Source: Flavisolibacter nicotianae (GTDB taxonomy: Bacteria > Bacteroidota > Bacteroidia > Chitinophagales > Chitinophagaceae). Taken from it: 64,000 nucleotides of DNA. How positions within the stretch are numbered: the stretch's first letter is position 1; every line of letters begins with the position of its first letter. The notes beneath the pieces were generated by a model, which saw only the letters and a list, made by a program, of their open reading frames with translations, ran no database searches and was not told the origin of the DNA. The translations under genes and the position numbers were made by a program. Positions 17,868-47,112 of this stretch are shown here, piece after piece. The stretch is from contig NZ_RBCI01000001.1 of NCBI RefSeq assembly GCF_003628535.1, forward strand, positions 992,001-1,056,000, read 5' to 3'.

Positions 17868-18572
17868 TTAGATGATTCTATCACTTTTGCTCAAGTTGTG
17901 TCTTGCACAAAGCAGCTGAATATTTTCTGTCTTAAGCGAAGTTCCTCCTTTGGAAAAGGGTAAAATATGGTCGAAGTGTAAATTATCGGTACTACCGCAT
18001 TCCACACATCTGCCTTTATCTCGTTTCCAGACTTCAAGTTTTACGGAAGTAGGAATCATTCTGTTATGGTCCAAATCTTTTAATTCCTCAACTCTTCTTT
18101 CCTTTTCAAGAATGGTTTTATCAGTGACATGCAATTTGAACTTAAAAACATTGCGATTGATATCCTTTTCTATCCATGCATCGACTAATTCAAATACACC
18201 ATTGTAAACCCAGATGCCATCTTTTATTTTTTCATAAACCTTTATCAACTCTGGACCTTGCAATCCTTTTTTAAACTTCTCTGCAGCCTCGAAAAATTTC
18301 CCGTTTTCAGTAAGTGCACCTTTGGGAGTTTGGTAAGGTTGATCCACAGACTTTGGATCGCGAGCAAGATTTCTTGGAACATCATGCCCTTCATAAACTA
18401 GAGTTTCTCCATTGTCTTCGACCATATCTGCGTACGGTGCTCCTTTGCGCAAAGACATTAGAATAACAGTTACTCCTCCTTTCAGTCGAAAGTTCATTCC
18501 CTTTTGTAGACTGACGCCTTCTTCCATACACATCTCAGCATGAGAAATAATATCACCTGGATAAATAGCCAT
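17868..18572 (-). CDS. HNH endonuclease, putative modification-dependent (SRA-like + HNH)
   Basis: A 234-residue protein. The N-terminal part (to about residue 150) contains VTVILMSLRKGAPYADMVED and ETLVYEGHDVP, resembling SRA-like modified-base-reading modules of McrA-type enzymes. The C-terminal part is a zinc-type HNH nuclease: CVECGSTDNLHFDHILPF, KTENIQLLC and RHN. The inferred role is restriction of DNA carrying modified bases. The gene start overlaps the stop of an XRE regulator by one base (TAATG), so the two are translationally coupled. AT-rich compared with the genes to its left. HNH confidence is high; the SRA reading is tentative. Confidence 0.8.
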   Translation of the reverse strand: MAIYPGDIISHAEMCMEEGVSLQKGMNFRLKGGVTVILMSLRKGAPYADMVEDNGETLVYEGHDVPRNLARDPKSVDQPYQTPKGALTENGKFFEAAEKFKKGLQGPELIKVYEKIKDGIWVYNGVFELVDAWIEKDINRNVFKFKLHVTDKTILEKERRVEELKDLDHNRMIPTSVKLEVWKRDKGRCVECGSTDNLHFDHILPFSKGGTSLKTENIQLLCARHNLSKSDRII

Positions 18573-18793
18573 TATTTCTTGAAACTTTTAGCATCAAAGA
18601 ACTCAGCGAAGGAAACTTCAAGAGCAGCAATAATCTTTTCCAGGATTTCTATAGAAATGTTGCGGCGACCGTTTTCAACATCCGTCATATACGTGCGATC
18701 CACTTCTGCTTTATTTGCTAGTGCTTCTTGGGAAAGTTCTAACTGGCGTCGTAGCTCTCTTATTCGTTGACCAACTTTTTCTTTGATATCCAT
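18572..18793 (-). CDS. XRE-family regulator, controller-protein-like
   Basis: A 73-residue helix-turn-helix protein, essentially one HTH_3 domain: GQRIRELRRQLELSQEALANKAEVDRTYMTDVENGRRNIS. The size and YMTDVENGRRNIS helix are typical of C proteins that time restriction-modification gene expression. It is encoded immediately upstream of, and overlaps by one base, the HNH nuclease gene. A GACTnnnAGTC-like site lies about 40 bp upstream of its start. It may also influence the divergent nuclease gene at 18888. Confidence 0.88.
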   Translation of the reverse strand: MDIKEKVGQRIRELRRQLELSQEALANKAEVDRTYMTDVENGRRNISIEILEKIIAALEVSFAEFFDAKSFKK

Positions 18794-18824
18794 TCAGGTC
18801 AAACATAGAGGGTTGTGGCTTTTA

Positions 18825-18843
18825 AGTCAACGGACTATAAGTG
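18825..18843. promoter_or_regulatory. Candidate C-box operator for the XRE regulator
   Basis: AGTC-AACG-GACT (18825-18836) overlaps GACT-ATA-AGTG (18833-18843). Controller proteins of restriction systems bind GACT/AGTC half-sites with such spacing; here one base of the last half-site differs. It lies between the divergent nuclease genes. Confidence 0.4.
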
Positions 18844-18887
18844 ACATAGCAAAATACTTTGCTTTATTTATCTTGTGTGCCGTTCCC

Positions 18888-19823
18888 ATGAATGCACTTT
18901 CGAGATACGTTCAAAAATTTAGCAAGCTTAGAGTTGACCGCTCCAAGGGAAAGCCTGCCCCACACAAGCCAATTCTGTTGTTATCAATAATTGAAGGGCT
19001 TACAAAAAATGAAATAGGAGAAAACAAAATTTACATCACTCCTGAACTGGTCGCAACCTTTAAAGACTATTGGCATCAATTGGTCTCTGATACAAGATTT
19101 ACCCCGAACTTTTCTTTGCCTTTTTACCACTTGAAAAGCGATGGCTTCTGGCATTTACAAACAACCGTAGGCCGTGAATTGCTTCTGACGAGCTCTCATT
19201 CTATCAAAAGTTTTTCGCAGCTCAAACAGGTGGTTGACTTCGCCTACTTCAACGAAGACTTGTTTGAACTACTAACAAACGCACATACACGGCAAATCCT
19301 GAAACAGACGCTCCTTGATGTATATTTTAATAGTGCCAGACTGGACGCTTCCCATCAGCTAATAGGAGCGATCATCGACCAAATCCTGCATGAGCCTTCT
19401 GTCGTTTACAAAACAAAAGCATCAACTTTCGATGAAGAAGAGGTCTTTGTCAGAAGTGGTGTATTCAAGAAAGAAATCCCAAAGATTTACAACTACACCT
19501 GTTCGATATCTGGCATGCGGATCATTACAGACCGCGACATTCAAATGATTGATGCCTGCCACATTGTTCCGTTTTCTGAGTCACACGATGATACCATTAA
19601 AAACGGTATTTCGCTTTGCCCAAATCTTCACCGGGCATTTGACCGGGGATTGATTTCTTTAGACGCTGAATACAGGGTGCTTGTCAAGCCTTTTACCGAA
19701 CAGGAGAACTTTTATTCGATTAAGCAGTTTGCAGGAAGGCAGATTTTGCTGCCAACCAACAAAAACTACTTCCCTGCAAAGGAGAATCTGGCTGCTCACC
19801 GGCTTAGACACAGCTTCATATAA
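18888..19823 (+). CDS. SBD-HNH type IV restriction endonuclease (ScoMcrA/SprMcrA-like)
   Basis: A 311-residue protein. The N-terminal domain has LRVDRSKGKPAPHKPILLLSI, an ITPELVATFKDYW segment and LPFYHLKSDGFWHL, the pattern of the DNA sulfur-binding domain of ScoMcrA-type enzymes that recognise phosphorothioate DNA. The C-terminal part is HNH_2: CSISGM, DACHIVPF and NGISLCPNLHRAFDRGLI. The inferred role is cleavage of phosphorothioated foreign DNA. The ATG at 18888 is preferred; the frame opens at 18783 but would add a hydrophobic stretch that overlaps the operator. Divergent from the XRE/HNH pair. Confidence 0.82.
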   Translation: MNALSRYVQKFSKLRVDRSKGKPAPHKPILLLSIIEGLTKNEIGENKIYITPELVATFKDYWHQLVSDTRFTPNFSLPFYHLKSDGFWHLQTTVGRELLLTSSHSIKSFSQLKQVVDFAYFNEDLFELLTNAHTRQILKQTLLDVYFNSARLDASHQLIGAIIDQILHEPSVVYKTKASTFDEEEVFVRSGVFKKEIPKIYNYTCSISGMRIITDRDIQMIDACHIVPFSESHDDTIKNGISLCPNLHRAFDRGLISLDAEYRVLVKPFTEQENFYSIKQFAGRQILLPTNKNYFPAKENLAAHRLRHSFI

Positions 19824-20086: not shown

Positions 20087-20935
20087 CTATCTCACTAATA
20101 ACTTATGCTTGATACTTTCTTCTTCAATCCAATATTCAGGAATTAACTTTTCTAGCAATTCGACTGCTTCTATTGAAAATAAGGAATAATCAATCTTTGT
20201 TTTCCAATCACTTTTTACTTTTGACAACTTTATTGGTTCTTCTGGAATAAGTAATTGAATAGAGGGAAATAAATTTTTCTTGATGTCTTGGTAAATCTCA
20301 ATACCTCGATTATCCCAGTCACACAGATAGTAGAATGACACCTTAGGCTCAGGAACAAACTTTAGCTTCGCTGTATTCCTGCCACCTGCAAACCAAAGCT
20401 CGATATCATCCAGTCTTGGCTTTCTTAACTGGTTATCATTCTCACAAAGAACAACAATTTTAGGTATTTTATTTTTGCAGTGTAATACATGTAGATATTG
20501 TTGGTCGTGTTCATCAATTGGCAAGGTTTCTACATCTAAAATCTTTAATACTGCTTCATACAACTTAGTGCCCCTCTTGAGATATTTAGCATCATCAAAA
20601 TATAGAGTAGAAATCTCTTTCATACTTTGTGAATCCAATAATATCGCCCCCTTATTCAACTCAATCTTCACTAGTGCTATTAAATCTGTTTCATTGAAAT
20701 TGGTGTCCTGTAAGCTATACTTACTTATTAAATCCTGAAATTGTTTATAATTTCTAAGTAATGTACCAGAATAATAGCCGTCAAAAAGGTTAGTCTTGAA
20801 TACTCTACTCTTATTAGAATAGACTATATATTCCATTTCCAACATTCTCTTAGCGAGAGGGATATCCATTATTTCTTTTGAAGTTTCACCCTTCTCGAAT
20901 AACTCATTTAAGAGTTTTATCGACTTCCAGTTCAT
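20087..20935 (-). CDS. jetD: JetD-like Toprim nuclease subunit (Wadjet/MksG-type, DUF2220)
   Basis: A 282-residue protein, last gene of a four-gene overlapping operon. The C-terminal half is a Toprim fold: catalytic Glu165 (IVVLCENDNQL), a GG turn (WFAGGRNTAKLKF) and the DxD pair Asp206/Asp208 (YYLCDWDNRGIEIY), the layout of JetD/DUF2220 nucleases related to topoisomerase VI A. In Wadjet, JetD cleaves plasmid DNA compacted by JetABC. It is clearly shorter than typical JetD (about 380-450 aa), so the N-terminal arm is reduced. Its start lies 32 bp inside the jetC-like gene. Confidence 0.82.
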   Translation of the reverse strand: MNWKSIKLLNELFEKGETSKEIMDIPLAKRMLEMEYIVYSNKSRVFKTNLFDGYYSGTLLRNYKQFQDLISKYSLQDTNFNETDLIALVKIELNKGAILLDSQSMKEISTLYFDDAKYLKRGTKLYEAVLKILDVETLPIDEHDQQYLHVLHCKNKIPKIVVLCENDNQLRKPRLDDIELWFAGGRNTAKLKFVPEPKVSFYYLCDWDNRGIEIYQDIKKNLFPSIQLLIPEEPIKLSKVKSDWKTKIDYSLFSIEAVELLEKLIPEYWIEEESIKHKLLVR

Positions 20936-23900
20936 TTTGTTCCTGCTTATACTGCGTTAACTCAACTTTTCTGTATTTCGTCTTAAAGAAACTCATGGGA
21001 GTATAGTTACGTTCTTTATCCTCCTTTCCTCTAACTAGCATGTGTAAGTACCATTCCTCATCATTATAGGAGCCAAAGGGTTTTGGTGTCATTGTTATTA
21101 ACTGATATCCAAACTGCTTCGATATCTCTGGAAAAATATTAAAGTTGGTGTCATCAATATTTGACAACTCTTCAATTATTATGAACTTAACTCCCTGGTT
21201 TTTTTCTTGATGTTTCTGGACAATTGACAACCTACCAATACAGAGTAAGGCTAAAGCAGTGTATGCTTGTCCCCCACTACCTGAATTTGACTTACCTTTT
21301 TCGTCCTCCATCATTACCTTAAGTTTGAAATAAAACTTAGGATTTAATAACTCAGACGGCTCTGCATTTACAGAATGATAAAATGTACGTGCAATATTTT
21401 TTATTAAGTTTTCTGGGGTATTCCCATTCTCAGGCAAGTTCTCCGGTAATGTAAATAAGTCAGGACCTAGCTTTTGAACCCTAGCCTTCTCCTTCATTTT
21501 TTCAATCCAGTCAATATTTATATCTTTTCTTGGTTCAAATTCAATTCTAAACTGAAAAAGATTACTTACTTTATTTTTCTGAAAAAAGAAGTTTAGCCGC
21601 CTTACTGTTTCTTCATTCTCTTTATACTGCTTTTCAACAAGACTAAAAACTTCAGTCAAAATTTTCAACTGCAAATCGCCTAAGGTGATAAGTGTATCAT
21701 TAAGCTGTTTCAACTCTTGTGTTAAGCCTTCAACTCCAATCTTACCACAAAGAATATCAACTAACGTTTGAAAGCTATAAGTAGGAAGGCCATTTGCCAA
21801 GTAGATTTCTGGATTATTATTTACTTGCTTAGTTTCATCAAATAGTTCACATACAGTTGTAAACTCCCTTTCATAACTCCTTTGAGCAATATCATACTGC
21901 TCATTTAAAGTGGAAATAATATCTTCTGTAATATTACCTAAGGAAAGTAATGAATCAAACATCAAATCAGTTTGCTCTTCTAACTCAGATTTAGATTGAT
22001 TGAATGATTTTTCAGCACTAGACTTGTTTATACTTAAAACTTTGTCCTTCTCTTTACATACCTGATAAATCCGGTCTAATTCATCTTTCTTTTTTCTGAT
22101 TGAGTTTCTAGCTTTATTAATTGTATCCAAGTCCTTAGATAAATCATCCCTTAAATCGATAAGTTGATTCTTACTTAAAAAGGAAATATCACTTTTTTGA
22201 AGTTCAATTGGATTAAGCAGTTCCCCTCGGATGTCTCTAAGCTCAACATAGATATTTGCAGACACTCTATCATTCTGCTTATACTCATTTTCCAAAGTAG
22301 CATTGTTACCAATAGCCTTTGTTATGTACCCATCTAACTTATCTGCTTCCTTTTTTATAGATTCTATTCTCTCAAAGGAATCAAAGCTTCGTTCAATAAA
22401 GTCTAAATTCTCTTCTGTAAGAAGCTTATTAACTTCAAAAGCTTCTATATTATCTCTGTTACAATATACTTCACAATATTCCTGGTTGTAGCCTAAATTC
22501 AGCAACTCTTGATTAAGTCTTTTTATATCCTCTTTTTCTTGTTTAAGCTCACCTACTTCTGCAACTACATTATCCCTATTGTTTTCCAAAGCTTGCTTTA
22601 GCTTATCCTTATCACTAAAGATTTGTTTTTGAACAAGTGGGATATACTCACATAAGTCTCCTAGCATAACCCATACTCCCTGACCTTCTCTTTCAAAAGA
22701 ATTCAACAAGAACTTAGGGTTCAGAGTAAACCTTAATCCTTTATTTGGGGAAACACGACTTATAAAGACATCTTTAAATGCCATCAAGATGCTTTCCTGC
22801 TCAATACTCAAAGAGCTACCTTCACTGATTGCCCAATTGAAAAACGAATCTTTATTGCCCTCGTCATATAACTTCAAGAGTTCATCATGAGACTCTAAAA
22901 GCCTATCAATCTCTTGTAACCTGGCATTATAAAACTCATAGGCACTAGTATAATCATTTGCCCACATGGAACTTTGGAACTTCCTGTAAAGAGTACAGGC
23001 TTTTAGTTTTGAGAGCCTCCTCTTTCGGTCTTTCATTTCTTCTTGATGTTCAAAAGCAGCATTTATTTGTTCAACTGTTTTATACTTATAAACAGTTGGC
23101 TGTAACATTTGCAGTCTTTCAACTTCACTCCTTAAGTTTTGTAGCTTCTTCTTTTGGGCATCAATATGTTGAGCATCGGATTCAGCTTTCTGCTCATCAA
23201 GTATATCTTTTATCCGTTGACAAGTTTCTTTCTGCTCTATTAGCTTTGAATAATACAATTGGCTTTGTAATTCATATTCAGCTGTAGAATTTTTGAAATC
23301 ACTAGCAGCCTTTTCCATCTTTGCATTATTCTCGTTATAGGCCTTTAAACTTTCGGTATAAAGGTTGAAATGAAAATGAGCTTTTTTAGTCAGGTGCTCA
23401 CCCTTTGATTTCAAATAAAAGTTATACGTATCTTTTAAATGTGATAGCTGTTTTTGCTTTCTTTCTAAGGTTTTAATTTCTAAATCAGCTTTATGAAAGT
23501 TCCGTATGTGCTGGTTTAAAACTTCTTTTTGTAGGTCAAATGATGTTTTAATATCGTCATTATCTTCAAACAAAAAGTCTTGTAAACTTTTGGACTTATT
23601 TACATCCAACGTTTTAGCCCTAGAAAAGGATTGTAACACCTTAGCAAAAGATTTAAAATTGTTCTCTTTTGTTAAGTCAATGGGTAGAATTTGATTCTTA
23701 TATAGAAGGTCAAAGTATTCATTTATCTGGTCCCTCTGATAAAAGTCCTTAAGGAAAAGATTGTAGTTTTTGTTTAAGGCTCTCTTTAACTCAGCCAAGT
23801 CATAAATATGCAGATTATCAGCAAGAAAGTCAGAATAAGATAATATTTGCTGAAAAGGTCTTAATGGCACTTTTTTATTCTCAAAGTCATCCCCCGCCTG

Positions 23901-24254
23901 GATTATAAAAGGTCTTACGGGCAACCTTGAACTTTTAGGAATAAACACACCAATAGTAATAAAGGAAGATTCAGACTTCTGTATGTTTATGAAGCAATAA
24001 GCATGATTTATCCACTCCTTATCTAAGGGAATACTTTCTATTCTTCTTTTATCCTTATCTAATCCTTCTGTCCCCGGTTTCCATTCATCTCTTAAGGGTA
24101 TAAATACTAATTGCAGTAAATCGGCTATTATAGACTTACCTAATCCGTTATTCCCAGTAAAGTCAGTCCTAACAGAATGCAAAAGGAAGTCAACATTGTC
24201 ATGCTGACGAACACCAACAGTTGATATTGAATATATTTTAGGGTAACTACTCAT
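20904..24254 (-). CDS. jetC: JetC-like SMC/MukB-type ATPase
   Basis: A 1116-residue SMC-like protein. Walker A is GNNGLGKS (34-41). Long coiled-coil segments follow (about 230-420 and 600-940) with a central hinge-like break. The ABC signature region is SGSGGQ (991-996), and Walker B is FIIIEE (1024-1029) followed by a MukB-like LSNIDD D-loop and QLITMTP. The Walker B acidic pair is Glu-Glu rather than Asp-Glu. It would be the DNA-loop-extruding motor of a Wadjet complex. It overlaps the preceding gene by 4 bp (ATGA). Strongly AT-rich, unlike the genes outside the island. Confidence 0.87.
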   Translation of the reverse strand: MSSYPKIYSISTVGVRQHDNVDFLLHSVRTDFTGNNGLGKSIIADLLQLVFIPLRDEWKPGTEGLDKDKRRIESIPLDKEWINHAYCFINIQKSESSFITIGVFIPKSSRLPVRPFIIQAGDDFENKKVPLRPFQQILSYSDFLADNLHIYDLAELKRALNKNYNLFLKDFYQRDQINEYFDLLYKNQILPIDLTKENNFKSFAKVLQSFSRAKTLDVNKSKSLQDFLFEDNDDIKTSFDLQKEVLNQHIRNFHKADLEIKTLERKQKQLSHLKDTYNFYLKSKGEHLTKKAHFHFNLYTESLKAYNENNAKMEKAASDFKNSTAEYELQSQLYYSKLIEQKETCQRIKDILDEQKAESDAQHIDAQKKKLQNLRSEVERLQMLQPTVYKYKTVEQINAAFEHQEEMKDRKRRLSKLKACTLYRKFQSSMWANDYTSAYEFYNARLQEIDRLLESHDELLKLYDEGNKDSFFNWAISEGSSLSIEQESILMAFKDVFISRVSPNKGLRFTLNPKFLLNSFEREGQGVWVMLGDLCEYIPLVQKQIFSDKDKLKQALENNRDNVVAEVGELKQEKEDIKRLNQELLNLGYNQEYCEVYCNRDNIEAFEVNKLLTEENLDFIERSFDSFERIESIKKEADKLDGYITKAIGNNATLENEYKQNDRVSANIYVELRDIRGELLNPIELQKSDISFLSKNQLIDLRDDLSKDLDTINKARNSIRKKKDELDRIYQVCKEKDKVLSINKSSAEKSFNQSKSELEEQTDLMFDSLLSLGNITEDIISTLNEQYDIAQRSYEREFTTVCELFDETKQVNNNPEIYLANGLPTYSFQTLVDILCGKIGVEGLTQELKQLNDTLITLGDLQLKILTEVFSLVEKQYKENEETVRRLNFFFQKNKVSNLFQFRIEFEPRKDINIDWIEKMKEKARVQKLGPDLFTLPENLPENGNTPENLIKNIARTFYHSVNAEPSELLNPKFYFKLKVMMEDEKGKSNSGSGGQAYTALALLCIGRLSIVQKHQEKNQGVKFIIIEELSNIDDTNFNIFPEISKQFGYQLITMTPKPFGSYNDEEWYLHMLVRGKEDKERNYTPMSFFKTKYRKVELTQYKQEQNELEVDKTLK

Positions 24255-24904
24255 TTTTTTAAATATTCTTCTATTGTATCAACATTCTTAATAACATCAC
24301 TATATAGTTTGCTTATTCTCTCAATACTCGGCATTATTTCAAACCGCATTTCATCATTATCTTTAATTACTATCCAGCCTAACTTTTCGAAATCATTTAA
24401 GGCCCTCTTGACCTTGTCTTTTACTGCTAGTTCCTCATTTGGTGTATAATTAGGCTTGACCTTACCATAAAGCAGATTTTGCCAGAGTTCTCTCTGTTCA
24501 CTTTCCTTAAAGATTTGTTCAAGCTCCTGCCATTCAAACTCTTTAGCTTCAAAGAATTTCTCTTTGTATAGGTTAAGCATTAGAATAAGAAAAATAACTT
24601 TTTCATCTTCTAGCTCTTTACTTCTGTTATCCTTACCAAACTTGCCTTTGCTATCTTCTGGAAACTCTAAATAATAAAACCGTTCATTATCACTTGAGTC
24701 TTTTGCCAAGTTCATCCCAAAGAAATCACGATAATACTCCCTTAATCCTTTATCATAATATTCATCGATAAAAGAAAACAACCTAGTATCACTACCATAA
24801 TCTTGGATATGCCGACCTTGCTTTAAAACAATATCAGTATCTGCAAAGTACCTTCTTGCCGATTCAGAGCTTAAGAAGGAGTAGACTGTAACTTCATTCT
24901 CCAT
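24251..24904 (-). CDS. jetB: JetB-like (MukE/KITE-type) subunit
   Basis: A 217-residue protein. Near the N-terminus it has VLKQGRHIQDY, matching the GRHI motif typical of MukE/MksE/JetB, followed by an aromatic-acidic stretch (LFSFIDEYYDKGLREYYRDFFGMNL) and a C-terminal winged-helix-like part (KDKVKRALNDFEKLGWIVI). As a KITE dimer it would bridge the kleisin and SMC heads. It starts 34 bp inside the jetA-like gene and overlaps the SMC gene by 4 bp. Assignment rests on the motif plus operon position. Confidence 0.78.
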   Translation of the reverse strand: MENEVTVYSFLSSESARRYFADTDIVLKQGRHIQDYGSDTRLFSFIDEYYDKGLREYYRDFFGMNLAKDSSDNERFYYLEFPEDSKGKFGKDNRSKELEDEKVIFLILMLNLYKEKFFEAKEFEWQELEQIFKESEQRELWQNLLYGKVKPNYTPNEELAVKDKVKRALNDFEKLGWIVIKDNDEMRFEIMPSIERISKLYSDVIKNVDTIEEYLKK

Positions 24905-26226
24905 AAAGCAATATTATACAGGGTCTTTTCAACCTTTTCTTTTTGAATTGAAATGCTTTTATTATTAGAATTATTGTAAGACTCAATTAAACCAAAGCAA
25001 ACTTGTATTGGTACTTCCAAGTTCTTCTCCTGAGATAAAATCTTATCAAACCATAGGTCAAAATCCACTTCAACACCACTTTCTATCTCCTGGCTAATTT
25101 TGTCTATCCATTTTGCAGTTGATTCCTGAACTTCTAACATTTTCAAGCCTTTTTCTCGTTCCATCTCCTCATACTCTTTATCAACTACATTCTTCTCTGG
25201 CTCAGATTTAGAATAAAATTGAAAATCTATATTTGGAACTGCTAAAAACTTTGTTGGTATAAAAGGCAACAACTTTTTAGGAAAAACTTGATGAATACTT
25301 ATCTCGCCTTTGTCTACCGTGCTTGTTCTCAGCATAATCAGCAATAGCTTTTCAATATTTATTTTGAAGTATTGCTTATGTTTTAGAGTATCTAATAAGT
25401 TCCTTAACCTTTTAGATGCTAACTGTATTTTATGATTGATAGCTATAATCCTTCTATCAATACTTTGAAAAAAGAATTCTATCTCATTTTGCATCCGGCA
25501 AAACTCCAAGTAGGCCTCCTCTTCAAACAAGAATTTGTCCTTAGACGACTTTATTTTATTGAGAGTGTCGTTCTTATGATCAATTGTATTAATCAAGCCA
25601 GAAGTTTGATTTTCTAATTCTTTAAAGATTTCCAGAAATGAGTTTATTAATTCCTTTGGATTTTCAACGTCAGGCTTTAGCAGCGTTCTTAAGTCATTTA
25701 GTCTCAGCTCAATGGAGGTTTGCAGCAATTCTGTATGTGCCAGTATCTCGTTCCTTGCTGGGCGAAAGTTATTATCAAACCAGTATTTTAAATTATCTAT
25801 ATTCTCAAGGTCACCATCATGAAGTGGTAATGTCCTCTTAAAAACGTGATATAGTTCCAGCTTTTTAAGTTCTGGCTGCACTTGGGTAAGTACTAATTTA
25901 CAGAATTCCTTGGCATATACTGTGAGATGTATTTGATACTTATTTCCAATCCTTTCGGTGATGAAAAAATAGCTACTTAGCTTACGGGAAAGGTTTTCCT
26001 TATTCTTTTCAGTTTCTATCTTTAGAAAATCTACAATTTCATCAATTGTATCATTCAAATCCTTTTGCTCGAAATCCTCATTTATGTAATTCTTTTCTAC
26101 CTTTCTATATAACCAAACAATCAATAGTAAAGATTCTTTGTTTTGAGGTAAGAGGTCTGAATAGCTTTTTGATAATGAAATTAATAACTCGTTTTGCAAA
26201 GCAGTAGCAGTTGGTTTATATATCAA
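24871..26226 (-). CDS. jetA: JetA-like (MukF-type kleisin) subunit
   Basis: A 451-residue, mostly helical protein, first gene of the SMC operon. The N-terminal 110 residues look like a winged-helix dimerisation domain; long helices follow (about 175-290), then a C-terminal helical domain after an acidic linker (EKNVVDKEYEEMEREKG). This fits the MukF/MksF/JetA kleisin family by size, order and predicted helicity, not by a single motif. The start is uncertain: TTG at 26226 is the first usable codon after an in-frame stop at 26230-26232, and no early ATG exists. AT-rich. Confidence 0.72.
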   Translation of the reverse strand: MIYKPTATALQNELLISLSKSYSDLLPQNKESLLLIVWLYRKVEKNYINEDFEQKDLNDTIDEIVDFLKIETEKNKENLSRKLSSYFFITERIGNKYQIHLTVYAKEFCKLVLTQVQPELKKLELYHVFKRTLPLHDGDLENIDNLKYWFDNNFRPARNEILAHTELLQTSIELRLNDLRTLLKPDVENPKELINSFLEIFKELENQTSGLINTIDHKNDTLNKIKSSKDKFLFEEEAYLEFCRMQNEIEFFFQSIDRRIIAINHKIQLASKRLRNLLDTLKHKQYFKINIEKLLLIMLRTSTVDKGEISIHQVFPKKLLPFIPTKFLAVPNIDFQFYSKSEPEKNVVDKEYEEMEREKGLKMLEVQESTAKWIDKISQEIESGVEVDFDLWFDKILSQEKNLEVPIQVCFGLIESYNNSNNKSISIQKEKVEKTLYNIALWRMKLQSTPS

Positions 26227-26446
26227 TAGTCAAAATAAGCTTAACTTGTTAGAAATGACTTGCTTATATAGAAGAAGATGACAAGTACAAACTGAAAATA
26301 AGAAAAGGTTTAATCATTTCCCATAAACGCAAAAGAAAGAATTCTTCGGCAAAAGAGTGTTGTTATGTTCAAATATTTTGTGCGTACTCCTAAATATTGG
26401 ACGGTTAAGAATTTAAGTAGAATACTTCAATTCAACAACTGTCATA

Positions 26447-26580
26447 ATGAAGCAATCACGATTTACTGAGACCCAGTTTGTGGCCATTTTAAGCAGCAGG
26501 AGTAAGGACTTAGTTCTTTAGAAGATCAAAATGACAATGTTAATGTTCTCAAAATTGAAAAGGCTAAAAGGGTATAAATG
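26447..26580 (+). mobile_element. Remnant of an IS3-family transposase orfA
   Basis: The frame from ATG 26447 reads MKQSRFTETQFVAIL, the characteristic start of IS3-family OrfA (MKxSRFTExQIVxIL), then stops at 26519-26521. A later stretch around 26556-26577 (LKRLKGYK) recalls the C-terminal RLKxMYA of OrfA. The element is internally deleted and non-functional. It lies between jetA and the tRNA-Phe repeat. Confidence 0.65.
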
Positions 26581-26668: not shown

Positions 26669-26728
26669 GGTGTGGGGCGGGATCGAACCGCCGACACAAG
26701 GATTTTCAGTCCTTTGCTCTACCGACTG
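26669..26728 (-). repeat. 60-bp direct copy of tRNA-Phe (att-like or degraded tRNA)
   Basis: Identical over 60 bases to 26933-26992, covering about bases 13-72 of tRNA-Phe: D-loop, anticodon arm, T arm and 3' acceptor strand. The 5' acceptor and D-stem bases have diverged (the copy begins GATAAAG instead of GGTGCGG on the minus strand) and cannot pair, so it is not a functional tRNA. The pattern is typical of an integration site. Confidence 0.85.
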
Positions 26729-26781
26729 CTCTACTTTATCACATCATTCAAAAAACAGCTAACATGATTCACATCCTTAAA

Positions 26782-26928: not shown

Positions 26929-26931
26929 TTG

Positions 26932-27004
26932 TGGTGTGGGGCGGGATCGAACCGCCGACACAAGGATTTTCAGTCCTTTGCTCTACCGACTGAGCTACCG
27001 CACC
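26932..27004 (-). tRNA. tRNA-Phe (anticodon GAA)
   Basis: 73 bases on the minus strand, starting GGTGCGGTAGCTCAG, with anticodon loop CTGAAAA and T arm GGCGG-TTCGATC-CCGCC. CCA is not encoded. The acceptor stem GGTGCGG / CCACACC has one C-A mismatch at pair 5-68, unusual for this tRNA. The same 3' strand is present in the copy at 26669, so it may have been brought in by integration. Confidence 0.93.
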
Positions 27005-45087: not shown

Positions 45088-45557
45088 TTACGGCGATCCC
45101 CTTTCTTTCTTTGGGTGAATCGAATGCCAGTAATCGATCCATCGATCGGTTATTTGCTCTTCGGACAAACGGTCATACGCAGGCGAAAACAGGGCAATGA
45201 GCTGGTTTACCTGCACGAGAATGATATGCCTGATGGCATATTGACTGCCGGCGCTGCAGTAAAATGAAAGAATCGATTCGAATACCGCTCCCCGTCCGAG
45301 TACTTGCGCCACTCCTTTGAACCGGTAACCTTTGCGGGTAAACACATCCACCACATTGATTTCGATGGAAGGGTTGGCCAAAAGATTCGCGGTTGTTCCC
45401 GGCGAGTGAATATCAGCAAAGGCCAGGTGCTCTTCATCCCAGGCGATCGTCGTTCCCTTCGGTGACAGGTTGGGCGTTCCGTCGGGACAAACAGTTGCAA
45501 TAAACCCCAGCCTGGCCTGGTTGACAAAGCCCGGACTTCTTGTGTTAAGAGACCCAT
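45088..45557 (-). CDS. Pyridoxamine 5'-phosphate oxidase-family protein, frameshift near start
   Basis: The body (RLGFIATVCPDGTPNLSPKGTT.., DIHSPGT, NPSIEINVVDVFTRKGYRFKG, split here for length) is a clear flavin-binding split-barrel protein. The family start MGxxTxEx is present as MGLLTQEV from ATG 45557, but in another frame: five bases (45529-45533) separate it from FVNQARLGF where six would restore the frame and give the expected 15-residue spacing. So one base appears lost about 25 bp into the gene. A TAATTTTG -7 box (45580-45587) supports the 45557 start. The downstream frame stays open upstream to 45771. Confidence 0.75.
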
Positions 45558-45579
45558 GGGAAACGTGCTGTTTGCCCAA

Positions 45580-45587
45580 CAAAATTA
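45580..45587 (-). promoter_or_regulatory. -7 box TAATTTTG
   Basis: Exact TAnnTTTG match on the minus strand, 22 bp before the ATG at 45557. Confidence 0.45.
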
Positions 45588-45797
45588 CGCCAGGTAGAGA
45601 GGAAGAAGAATTCGGGAAGCGAGCGAATGATTGATCGTGTTTCACAGCTAAGGTTGGGCATTCAATGTTCGTCAACATGTTTTGGCCGCTTGTCTCACTT
45701 GTAGAATTATGCAGTGAAAGTCTCCCGACTACATTCTGTCTTGTGCCGCCTTTATTAAACCAACGTGTCACTTGACACCAAGTGTCCGCTTAATGAT

Positions 45798-46016
45798 TTA
45801 TTGCATTTTACTTTTTTGTTTATAATACCATCGAACCAAAAGAATTCCCGGAATTACAAATAATGTAAACAAGATTGCCCCTTGCATAATTAGCTTGATC
45901 AAAGGCGCTTCACTTAAATCTTTTGCTACATAAGCTCTATCAAACCATGTCCGGGAAACTGCAATAAATAGTGCAAAAAACACAATAAAAGCATAGCCAT
46001 TTTTCATCAAATTCAC
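45798..46016 (-). CDS. Small membrane protein, 72 aa
   Basis: Two transmembrane helices (YAFIVFFALFIAVS and LIMQGAILFTLFVIPGILLV) separated by a charged loop (DRAYVAKDLSEAP), ending KQKSKMQ. Start ATG 46016 or 46007. AT-rich relative to neighbours and without recognisable family. A CACTTG-ACAC-CAAGTG palindrome lies just downstream near 45770. Confidence 0.55.
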   Translation of the reverse strand: MNLMKNGYAFIVFFALFIAVSRTWFDRAYVAKDLSEAPLIKLIMQGAILFTLFVIPGILLVRWYYKQKSKMQ

Positions 46017-46389
46017 TTCTCAAACTGGTTTATACTCCTTCCACATTATTACGTCAATAATTGTGATTTGTCACCCAGGAAACGTGACAATCTTAAAGTG
46101 AAGCTTCTCTGTTAGCTTTGGTCATACAGGGTGGTTTTAGTTGTAGCTAACGTGAAAGCGCTTTGTGAAGGTGGGTTATTTGGAAATTGGTTGCTCAACT
46201 TCTGTACTTTCGAAGATTGATGTTTGCCGCTGAAAATTAGCACTTCAACTCCACTTTTACAAAGCGGTATGTTAGCCGCATCCTTGCTGCTATTTCGTCT
46301 GACAATCCAAAAATGAAGCTGTTTATGATGATGCCATTGCTTCAAATCACATTATATTTATAACTATTGGGCTAATTATTTTGTCTGTT
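46017..46389. other. 373 bp intergenic region with long inverted repeat
   Basis: Contains TTGTCAC/GTGACAA around 46067-46089, a GTTAGC at 46111 and the 131-bp inverted-repeat element described separately. No coding sequence is supported. Confidence 0.55.
46146..46276 (+). repeat. 131-bp imperfect inverted repeat, attC-like
   Basis: The left arm GCTAAC...GCGCTTTGTGAAGGTGG pairs with the right arm CCACTTTTACAAAGCG...GTTAGC across a central loop of about 76 bases. Terminal GCTAAC/GTTAGC and the total length resemble an integron attC site, though core sites deviate from RYYYAAC/GTTRRRY. Confidence 0.45.
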
Positions 46390-47112
46390 ATGAGTGATAT
46401 CTTTCTTATTAAAACATTGATTGTAAGCCTGTTGTCATTTAGTTTCGTAGGTTACGCTCAATCGGCAACCACTCAATCAGCCGCTAAATTTTTAAAAGAA
46501 AGAGACGAACGAGTGTTTCGTGATAACAACAACAACTATGGGGTAACCTATGCTGATGTTACAGGAACTCCTTTTTGGAAAAACAGTTATTTAAACGCAA
46601 TCCTGTTTGAAAATGGGGCTCCGATTGAAACAACTCCTGTTAAAATAAATCTGTTTACCAATGAACTCTATTTTTTAAAAGAAAACCAAGAACTTGTTTT
46701 GGCCGATAACAATGTCAATAAAGTCGTATTTGTTACACCGAGCGACACAGTCACATTCATTAGATTTGTCCTCAATCTTTTCTTAAATAGGAAGAAAATG
46801 GATGGCTTTGTACAAGTACTCAATACTGGTGAATATCAACTTTTAAAATACATCCAAAAAGAGCTTTTAACCAGTGATTCTGCTTTATCAGCCAAGCGCT
46901 ATTATTTCAAAGAAACCAATTACTATTTTATAAGAAAAGGGCAAAAGGTTGAACAAATCAAAAAGATGGACAAAGAAAACGTACTTGTTCATGTACCTCT
47001 TTCAGGTAAATTGAAAGAATGGATTGATGCAAACCATTTAAATTTTGAAAAAGAAAAAGACATCATTTTATTTTTAAGCTATTATAACTCAAGTGCAGTC
47101 CCAAGGAATTAA
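46390..47112 (+). CDS. Hypothetical exported protein, 240 aa (low GC)
   Basis: The N-terminus (MSDIFLIKTLIVSLLSFSF up to YAQ) is a signal peptide; ATG at 46390 is preferred to TTG at 46381. The mature part has no recognised domain; a LYFLKENQELVLADNNVNKVVF stretch (here split in meaning, not sequence) and DTVTFIRF suggest a beta-rich Bacteroidota exported protein. Composition is much more AT-rich than mqnC next door, and the attC-like element lies just upstream, suggesting acquisition. Function unknown. Confidence 0.65.
   Translation: MSDIFLIKTLIVSLLSFSFVGYAQSATTQSAAKFLKERDERVFRDNNNNYGVTYADVTGTPFWKNSYLNAILFENGAPIETTPVKINLFTNELYFLKENQELVLADNNVNKVVFVTPSDTVTFIRFVLNLFLNRKKMDGFVQVLNTGEYQLLKYIQKELLTSDSALSAKRYYFKETNYYFIRKGQKVEQIKKMDKENVLVHVPLSGKLKEWIDANHLNFEKEKDIILFLSYYNSSAVPRN

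What the first reader, a model, noticed from the sequence alone, without database searches (positions are those of the whole stretch)
20087..26226. Wadjet-like JetABCD operon, probably a divergent subtype
Seen: four minus-strand genes overlapping by 34, 4 and 32 bp encode, in order, a helical kleisin-like protein (451 aa), a MukE-like protein with KQGRHI (217 aa), an SMC/MukB-like ATPase (1116 aa) and a Toprim protein with E...DxD (282 aa). Known: this is the JetA-JetB-JetC-JetD order of Wadjet/MksBEFG, which extrudes and cleaves circular plasmid DNA. Inferred: the operon is a plasmid-defence system. Subunit motifs are recognisable only in parts, so it may be a subtype not covered by the standard I-III models.
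Basis: partly seen in the sequence, partly recalled or inferred. Interest (0 to 1): 0.8.

Follow-up and report, generated by a model that had tools for sequence, protein, structure and literature searches.

The report
MukBEF-like Wadjet plasmid-defence operon
A four-gene bacterial operon looks like a DNA-cutting plasmid-defence machine of a branch that the PADLOC defence models barely detect, and its nearest relatives without the cutting subunit look like resident chromosome organisers, so it bears on how one became the other.

Summary
In detail: four overlapping minus-strand genes encode a MukF-like kleisin (JetA), an MksE-type KITE (JetB), a MukB-like SMC ATPase (JetC) and a Toprim nuclease (JetD). 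Predicted folds match MukF (JetA) and MksG/JetD (JetD). The operon sits in a 33% GC island beside tRNA-Phe (51% outside the island). The Wadjet reading is supported, and so is "not covered by types I-III": PADLOC gives no match for JetA, JetB or JetC and a weak one for JetD, while a type I control operon matches from 8e-63 to 0. It is no orphan: a scan of named genomes confirmed 158 related JetDs; of the 80 kept, 58 lie in complete JetABCD operons and 7 are close (46-63%). The unexpected part is the sister group: the closest other JetABC cores (41-46% in JetC) have no detectable JetD. JetD-less cores fall in at least three places on the JetC tree, and one origin is rejected. Those tested are lineage-wide, and 0 of 27 such genomes have ScpA; but 7 of 8 JetD-bearing genomes of the same sample lack ScpA too. 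This fits repeated conversion of immune SMC complexes into resident condensins, proposed before for Pseudomonas MksBEF. Plasmid restriction is inferred, not shown.

The parts
24871..26226 (-). JetA: MukF-like kleisin, 451 aa, TTG start
   Evidence: ORF; AF2 pLDDT 81.7, pTM 0.46; Foldseek MukF 9gm7 5.4e-7 and E. coli JetA 8q72 4.4e-4
24251..24904 (-). JetB: KITE subunit, MksE type, 217 aa
   Evidence: Pfam MksE PF21980 5.3e-20, over cut-off; MukE and DUF4194 below cut-off
20904..24254 (-). JetC: SMC/MukB-like ATPase, 1116 aa; Walker A GNNGLGKS, signature GSGGQ, Walker B FIIIEE
   Evidence: profile to MukB in PDB 3.5e-9 and hhalign 2.8e-11; motifs
20087..20935 (-). JetD: Toprim nuclease, 282 aa; E165, D206, D208
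   Evidence: AF2 pLDDT 93.8; Foldseek MksG 8b7f 7.9e-7, JetD 7til 2.9e-5; the three acidic residues invariant in the 70 rows of A3
26931..27004 (-). tRNA-Phe (gaa) at the right edge of the low-GC island
   Evidence: beside recQ in 15 of the 15 same-genus loci scanned
26669..26734 (-). partial duplicate of tRNA-Phe, 66 nt at 97%, start-to-start 264 bp: likely attachment-site remnant (inference)
   Evidence: a 37-nt core has 2 matches in the window, 0 expected
17868..18572 (-). island neighbour: SRA-HNH protein, likely modification-dependent restriction enzyme
   Evidence: Pfam HNH 3.2e-8 over cut-off; SAD_SRA 4.4e-7, just under cut-off
18572..18793 (-). island neighbour: Cro/CI-type HTH regulator
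   Evidence: Pfam HTH_3 2.4e-14
18783..19823 (+). island neighbour: HNH protein like phosphorothioate-DNA restriction enzymes; TTG start uncertain
   Evidence: NCBIfam NF045808 4.9e-32, 111 bits against a cut-off of 180

Best explanation
The operon is a JetABCD-type (Wadjet/MksBEFG) SMC nuclease with a MukBEF/MksBEF-like core. Inferred mechanism, by homology to type I Wadjet: JetC dimers held by the JetA kleisin and JetB KITEs load on DNA and extrude loops using ATP. On small circular DNA, extrusion runs to completion and the converging motors activate the JetD Toprim nuclease, which cuts the plasmid; the chromosome escapes because extrusion does not finish there. Shown here: subunit identities, gene order, intact ATPase and Toprim motifs, island context, and a distinct JetABCD branch found mainly in Bacteroidota. 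Inferred: complex formation, extrusion, cleavage and plasmid restriction. On descent: JetD was most likely present in the ancestor of this branch and was lost at least three times, leaving JetD-less cores that look like resident chromosomal condensins.
For: Subunits. Catalytic E165, D206, D208 invariant in 70 of 70 aligned JetDs and aligned with type I E, D, D. Gene order A-B-C-D full-length and contiguous in 58 of 80 kept loci; JetD starts within 30 bp of the JetC end or overlaps it in 67 of 67 loci with both full-length. Island: GC 33% against 51% outside, tRNA-Phe with partial duplicate, restriction-like neighbours. Of the 7 closest JetD relatives, L073 and L079 flank AbiE pairs and L074 has a serine recombinase about 7 kb downstream. 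Patchy: 2 of 18 genomes of the window's genus have a JetC match (own, and G402 with a distant one). Descent: window, L074-L078 and JetD-less clade 1 form one clade at 100/99; fewest changes of JetD status 3, one JetD-less clade rejected, p-AU 2.6e-6; JetC and JetD path lengths correlate, r 0.79 over 42 rows, 0 of 2000 permutations reach it.
Against: No functional data. JetA has no profile match to type I JetA (E 0.57) and its model is of middling quality. JetD is about 100 aa shorter than type I JetD. Foldseek TM-scores of the top hits are low (JetD 0.43, JetA 0.41, normalised by the query), as expected if domains are posed differently, but not proof of the same architecture. The JetC hinge was not tested. 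In the JetD tree, L054 and L099 join the window clade (98) while their JetC joins the side of JetD-less clade 2, and L140 also moves: long branches or swaps. The outgroup root is reached through very long branches and counts of changes cannot tell gain from loss, so loss rests on congruence and parsimony.
Confidence: 0.8

Rival explanations
1. A chromosomal MksBEF condensin that happens to sit beside a Toprim gene; JetD is a passenger and the complex mainly organises the chromosome.
For: The core is nearer MukB/MukF than type I JetC/JetA by profile; JetB is MksE-type; the closest cores outside the 7 close relatives lack JetD.
Against: JetD overlaps JetC by 32 bp here, and lies within 30 bp of JetC or overlaps it in 67 of 67 kept loci with both genes full-length; JetC and JetD distances co-vary; the host has ScpA, so at least one subunit of another condensin; the operon is patchy in its genus and in a low-GC island.
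Confidence: 0.1
2. Same machine, but the target is not plasmids: JetD cuts phage DNA or other circular intermediates.
For: Most mechanistic work is on type I; types II/III may recognise other substrates (PMC10586767, passages). Neighbours are restriction-like genes and AbiE pairs in two relatives.
Against: All four subunits and the JetD acidic residues match the plasmid-cutting systems.
Confidence: 0.15
3. JetD was gained by the window clade: the JetD-less condensin is ancestral and a defence system arose from it.
For: JetD-less clade 1 lies in the same 100/99 clade as the window group; the root is uncertain.
Against: The next clade out is JetD-bearing in 14 of 15 rows (exception L047), the type I outgroup rows carry JetD, and JetD distances track JetC distances with the window clade as its own deep JetD lineage.
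Confidence: 0.15
4. Decayed or non-functional operon.
For: JetA uses a TTG start; one close relative (L073) has JetC split in two ORFs.
Against: All four window frames are open with intact motifs.
Confidence: 0.05

Closest known systems
Wadjet type I / MksBEFG / EptABCD
   Same: Gene order A-B-C-D; kleisin, KITE, SMC ATPase, Toprim nuclease; JetD fold and acidic residues.
   Different: Not recognised by PADLOC type I-III models for A, B and C; JetB is MksE-type, with DUF4194 under cut-off; JetD 282 aa against 384-397 in three type I operons; no JetA profile match.
MukBEF (E. coli)
   Same: MukF-like kleisin fold; JetC profile scores MukB better (E 2.8e-11) than type I JetC (2.7e-6).
   Different: Has JetD; JetC 1116 aa against MukB 1486 aa.
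MksBEF (chromosomal, P. aeruginosa)
   Same: MksE Pfam family in JetB.
   Different: Carries JetD. P. aeruginosa MksB itself was not fetched or compared.
   Same: 41-46% identity in JetC, same E-E Walker B, same A-B-C order.
   Different: No JetD found in those genomes; present in all or nearly all genomes of the two lineages tested.

Membership tests
Wadjet (JetABCD) | Four-gene operon in the order JetA-B-C-D | tested here: met
Wadjet (JetABCD) | JetA is a MukF-like kleisin | tested here: met
   fold search; no sequence-profile match to type I JetA
Wadjet (JetABCD) | JetB is a KITE protein | tested here: met
   Pfam MksE over cut-off; no model predicted
Wadjet (JetABCD) | JetC is an SMC ATPase with Walker A, signature and Walker B | tested here: met
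   Walker B reads E-E where 12 of the 22 rows read D-E
Wadjet (JetABCD) | JetC hinge domain | not tested
Wadjet (JetABCD) | JetD has the MksG/TopoVI-A Toprim fold with E and DxD | tested here: met
Wadjet (JetABCD) | JetD N-terminal CAP domain | tested here: inconclusive
   Foldseek aligns along MksG but with TM 0.43; hhalign covers the C-terminal, Toprim-bearing part only
Wadjet (JetABCD) | Restricts circular plasmids | not testable with these tools
   -
Wadjet types I-III as modelled in PADLOC 2.0 | All four proteins match JetA-D models | tested here: not met
   control. JetB was tested only for the window and L074
MukBEF/MksBEF condensin | Three subunits without a nuclease subunit | tested here: not met
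   JetD present and overlapping JetC
RecN/Rad50-type or Lamassu ATPase | Best match of JetC to those families, no kleisin/KITE partners | tested here: not met
   No LmuB match for window JetC; 1 of 22 members of A2 matches LmuB at 3.4e-5, as does the type I control

The most novel reading that the evidence does not exclude
This JetABCD is a surviving member of the immune lineage from which resident chromosomal condensins of several families of its class were made by dropping JetD. JetD was lost at least three separate times, and the JetD-less cores then stood in for Smc-ScpAB. The window operon and its JetD-less sister would be a matched pair for testing what turns an immune SMC into a housekeeping one.
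Probability: 0.4. Interest if true: 0.82.

Novelty: new variant of a known kind. Interest (0 to 1): 0.62.

Why it matters
A review states that the relation of Wadjet to MukBEF/MksBEF is unresolved and speculates that the condensins came from Wadjet, MksBEF of P. aeruginosa by loss of JetD (PMC10586767, passages). A Hi-C study found no known condensin in the two Bacteroidetes it examined and asked what aligns their chromosome arms (PMC10197239, passages). This branch gives related JetD-bearing and JetD-less cores in one class, so direction, number of events and change of role can be tested. It also shows a Wadjet branch, frequent among the Bacteroidota loci kept here, that PADLOC 2.0 models barely detect; DefenseFinder was not tried.

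Tried and rejected
Plasmid and phage collections searched with window proteins: no match for JetC in plasmids, none for JetD in plasmids or phages. One IMG/VR contig (L206) carries a 29% JetD, in an operon read by eye. JetD profile against PDB by sequence: nothing meaningful; only the fold search worked.

First genome-contig scan with JetC alone found nothing; the second, with a JetD alignment, worked.

PADLOC JetC2 model over 118 genomes: 66 of 118 genomes ring, weakly and over mixed parts and frame lengths, which looks like coiled coil; not used.

Residues fixed in JetD-bearing close relatives and absent from JetD-less clade 1 (3 in JetA, 1 in JetB, 7 in JetC). The best two (JetA 154, JetB 77) do not separate JetD-bearing from JetD-less rows in the wider set, so no docking site is claimed.

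Holding window and L074-L078 as one clade apart from the JetD-less rows: not rejected (p-AU 0.085); L078's place is open.

Empty site: not shown. In 6 regions taken from 6 relatives the recQ side is shared and no gene of the window's left side is found within about 13 kb.

ScpA: 0 of 27 JetD-less genomes against 82 of 395 in the class sample; hypergeometric 0.0015. Against this: 7 of the 8 JetD-bearing genomes of the same sample also lack ScpA (only G040 has it), ScpA follows family, and none of the 8 JetD-less families is among the 21 with ScpA. So it is suggestive only. Smc and ScpB were not searched.

Rows dropped: A2, A3 and A4 hold 21 of 97, 69 of 86 and 49 of 88 distinct sequences held, plus the window. 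The first JetC tree used 71 of 102 rows (JetD-bearing rows thinned at random, four kept by name); the careful tree used 52 of those 71: 4 outgroups and 15 rows left out, near-duplicates, rows cut by contig ends and the long-branched, discordant L140. One row of unknown JetD status (L067) was counted with the JetD-less rows in the clade test. JetCs split in two or more ORFs (such as L073, L046, L112, L141, L151) were not joined and not used in trees. In one search the phmmer step of my script failed; labels there rest on blastp alone.
Full report
Observation. The genome has one copy. GC is 33% over 20.0-26.3 kb against 51.3% outside 17.5-26.9 kb. tRNA-Phe lies at 26931-27004, with a 66-nt partial duplicate 264 bp away start to start (a 37-nt core found twice, 0 expected). 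tRNA-Phe sits beside recQ in 15 of 15 loci scanned, from 15 of the 17 other genomes of the genus (the other two gave no full-length orthologue). In 6 of 6 relatives taken further, no gene of the window's left side follows. Inside the island are an SRA-HNH protein, an HTH regulator and an HNH protein like phosphorothioate-DNA restriction enzymes. The host is probably Chitinophagaceae: G402, "same genus", carries the same DNA as the record of Flaviaesturariibacter flavus found (31 of 34 sampled 200-base blocks identical between L057 and L089, whose ranges differ), a member of Chitinophagaceae.

Subunits. JetB matches Pfam MksE at 5.3e-20, over cut-off. A JetC profile matches MukB structures at 3.5e-9. 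The JetD model (pLDDT 93.8) matches C. glutamicum MksG at 7.9e-7, P. aeruginosa JetD at 2.9e-5 and topoisomerase VI A at 4.8e-3. The JetA model (pLDDT 81.7, pTM 0.46) matches MukF at 5.4e-7 and E. coli JetA at 4.4e-4. TM-scores are low in both cases (0.43 and 0.41 for the top hits, normalised by the query). JetD residues E165, D206 and D208 are invariant in 70 of 70 aligned sequences and align with E, D and D of type I JetD (E 3.6e-8). JetC has Walker A GNNGLGKS, signature GSGGQ and a Walker B ending in E-E; of the 22 rows shown there, 10 have E-E (window, the seven JetD-less clade 1 rows, L047, L059) and 12 have D-E.

Coverage by models. PADLOC finds nothing for window JetA, JetB or JetC and only 4e-4 for JetD. 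In relatives: 0 of 50 JetA members match a JetA model; JetC matches in at most 3 of 22 members per model, best E 1.1e-5; JetD matches in at most 21 of 70 per model, best E 2.3e-8. Control: a type I operon from another Bacteroidota genome (L153) scores 3.4e-146, 8.4e-63, 0 and 7.7e-126. By profile, JetC scores better with MukB (2.8e-11) than with type I JetC (2.7e-6), and JetA finds weak MukF similarity (0.0033) and none to type I JetA (0.57). These comparisons are uneven in depth (three type I rows, one Muk row).

Distribution. JetC in 395 genomes of the class: 36 matched, being the own genome, 8 with JetD and 27 without. A JetD-alignment scan of named genomes confirmed 158 loci, of which the best 80 were kept; 58 of these 80 hold all four genes full-length and contiguous, the other 22 being cut by stretch ends, split or lacking a recognised full-length gene. 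Seven are close at 46-63%: MAGs labelled Dysgonamonadaceae, Cytophagales, Saprospiraceae (two), Bacteroidales, Nautiliaceae and Altiarchaeales; labels of small MAG contigs may be wrong. Of these, L074, L075, L077 and L078 have the complete operon; L073 has JetC in two ORFs, L076 has JetB about 4 kb from JetC and no JetA in the stretch, and L079 is cut within JetC. L073 and L079 flank AbiE pairs; L074 has a serine recombinase about 7 kb downstream.

JetD-less sister. The closest JetCs outside those seven (41-46% over the full length) lie in JetA-JetB-JetC operons. The next genes downstream differ from genome to genome; of eight tested with Pfam six match unrelated families (phosphatase, patatin, glyoxalase, WapI-like, leucine-rich repeat, transporter) and two match none. 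A JetD profile finds nothing in 27 of 27 JetD-less genomes while hitting 9 of 9 JetD-bearing ones; several of the 27 are incomplete (down to 59%) and a few of their operons run off contigs. Two lineages, chosen because they had many hits, were tested for spread: the genus of G015 (clade 1) has the core in 7 of 7 genomes held, and the family of G230 in 11 of 12, the miss being 66% complete. In that family one genus has clade 1 and two genera have clade 2. JetD-less genomes lack ScpA (0 of 27), the window genome has it, and 82 of 395 in the class sample have it. But 7 of the 8 JetD-bearing genomes of that sample lack it as well, and ScpA follows family, so this is suggestive only.

Phylogeny. 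The careful JetC tree (52 rows) puts the window with L074 (100/99), with L075-L077 (100/100), and with L078 and JetD-less clade 1 (100/99). JetD-less clade 2 and L047 fall elsewhere. Fewest changes of JetD status: 3; one JetD-less clade is rejected (p-AU 2.6e-6), and clades 1 plus 2 alone also (1.3e-8). JetC and JetD path lengths correlate (r 0.79 over 42 rows, 0 of 2000 permutations; 0.85 without L054, L099, L140), and the JetD tree keeps the window group as its own lineage (94). Against: L054 and L099 JetDs join that lineage (98), and the root depends on long outgroup branches. I read this as an old JetD lost several times; gain cannot be excluded.

Mechanism and literature. The working model (loop extrusion to completion, then JetD cleavage) is taken from type I studies as reviewed in PMC10586767 (passages read), which also says the origin of Wadjet is unresolved and suggests that P. 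aeruginosa MksBEF arose by loss of JetD. PMC10123090 (passages) describes MksG; PMC10512200 (passages) reviews structures; PMC10197239 (passages) reports no known condensin in the two Bacteroidetes examined. My literature searches (listings seen, the four papers above read in passages) showed no description of this branch; the library is partial, and many papers were not listed, so this is not proof of absence.

Verdict. Its main value is the pair of JetD-bearing and JetD-less cores.

Noticed in passing
window 17868-19823: SRA-HNH protein, HTH regulator and phosphorothioate-DNA-type HNH protein next to the operon: a small island aimed, by its looks, at modified DNA.
   Followed up: partly
window 26365-26469: Short ORF in the gap between JetA and the tRNA duplicate; the stretch there resembles, from memory, the start of an IS3-type transposase OrfA; not tested.
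   Followed up: no
window 45088-47112: Second GC dip (41%) with a pyridoxamine-phosphate-oxidase-like protein and a 243-aa protein without Pfam match.
   Followed up: partly
L043, L044, L045, L065 (genus of G015): JetD-less JetC ORFs of 1204-1287 aa, longer than the 1116 aa of the window's JetC; where the extra residues lie was not studied.
   Followed up: no
L206: IMG/VR contig with a JetABCD-like operon (29% JetD, JetC apparently in two ORFs) followed by a short ORF whose start reads, from memory, like a Cas9 N-terminus.
   Followed up: no
L075: Close relative on a 6.6-kb contig labelled Altiarchaeales archaeon; may be misbinned DNA or transfer to archaea.
   Followed up: no
L054, L099: JetC groups with JetD-less clade 2 but JetD groups with the window clade: subunit swap or long-branch effect.
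   Followed up: partly
class sample: 313 of 395 genomes show no ScpA, and only 34 of the 395 besides the own genome and G040 match JetC; what condensin the rest use is not known from these searches.
   Followed up: no
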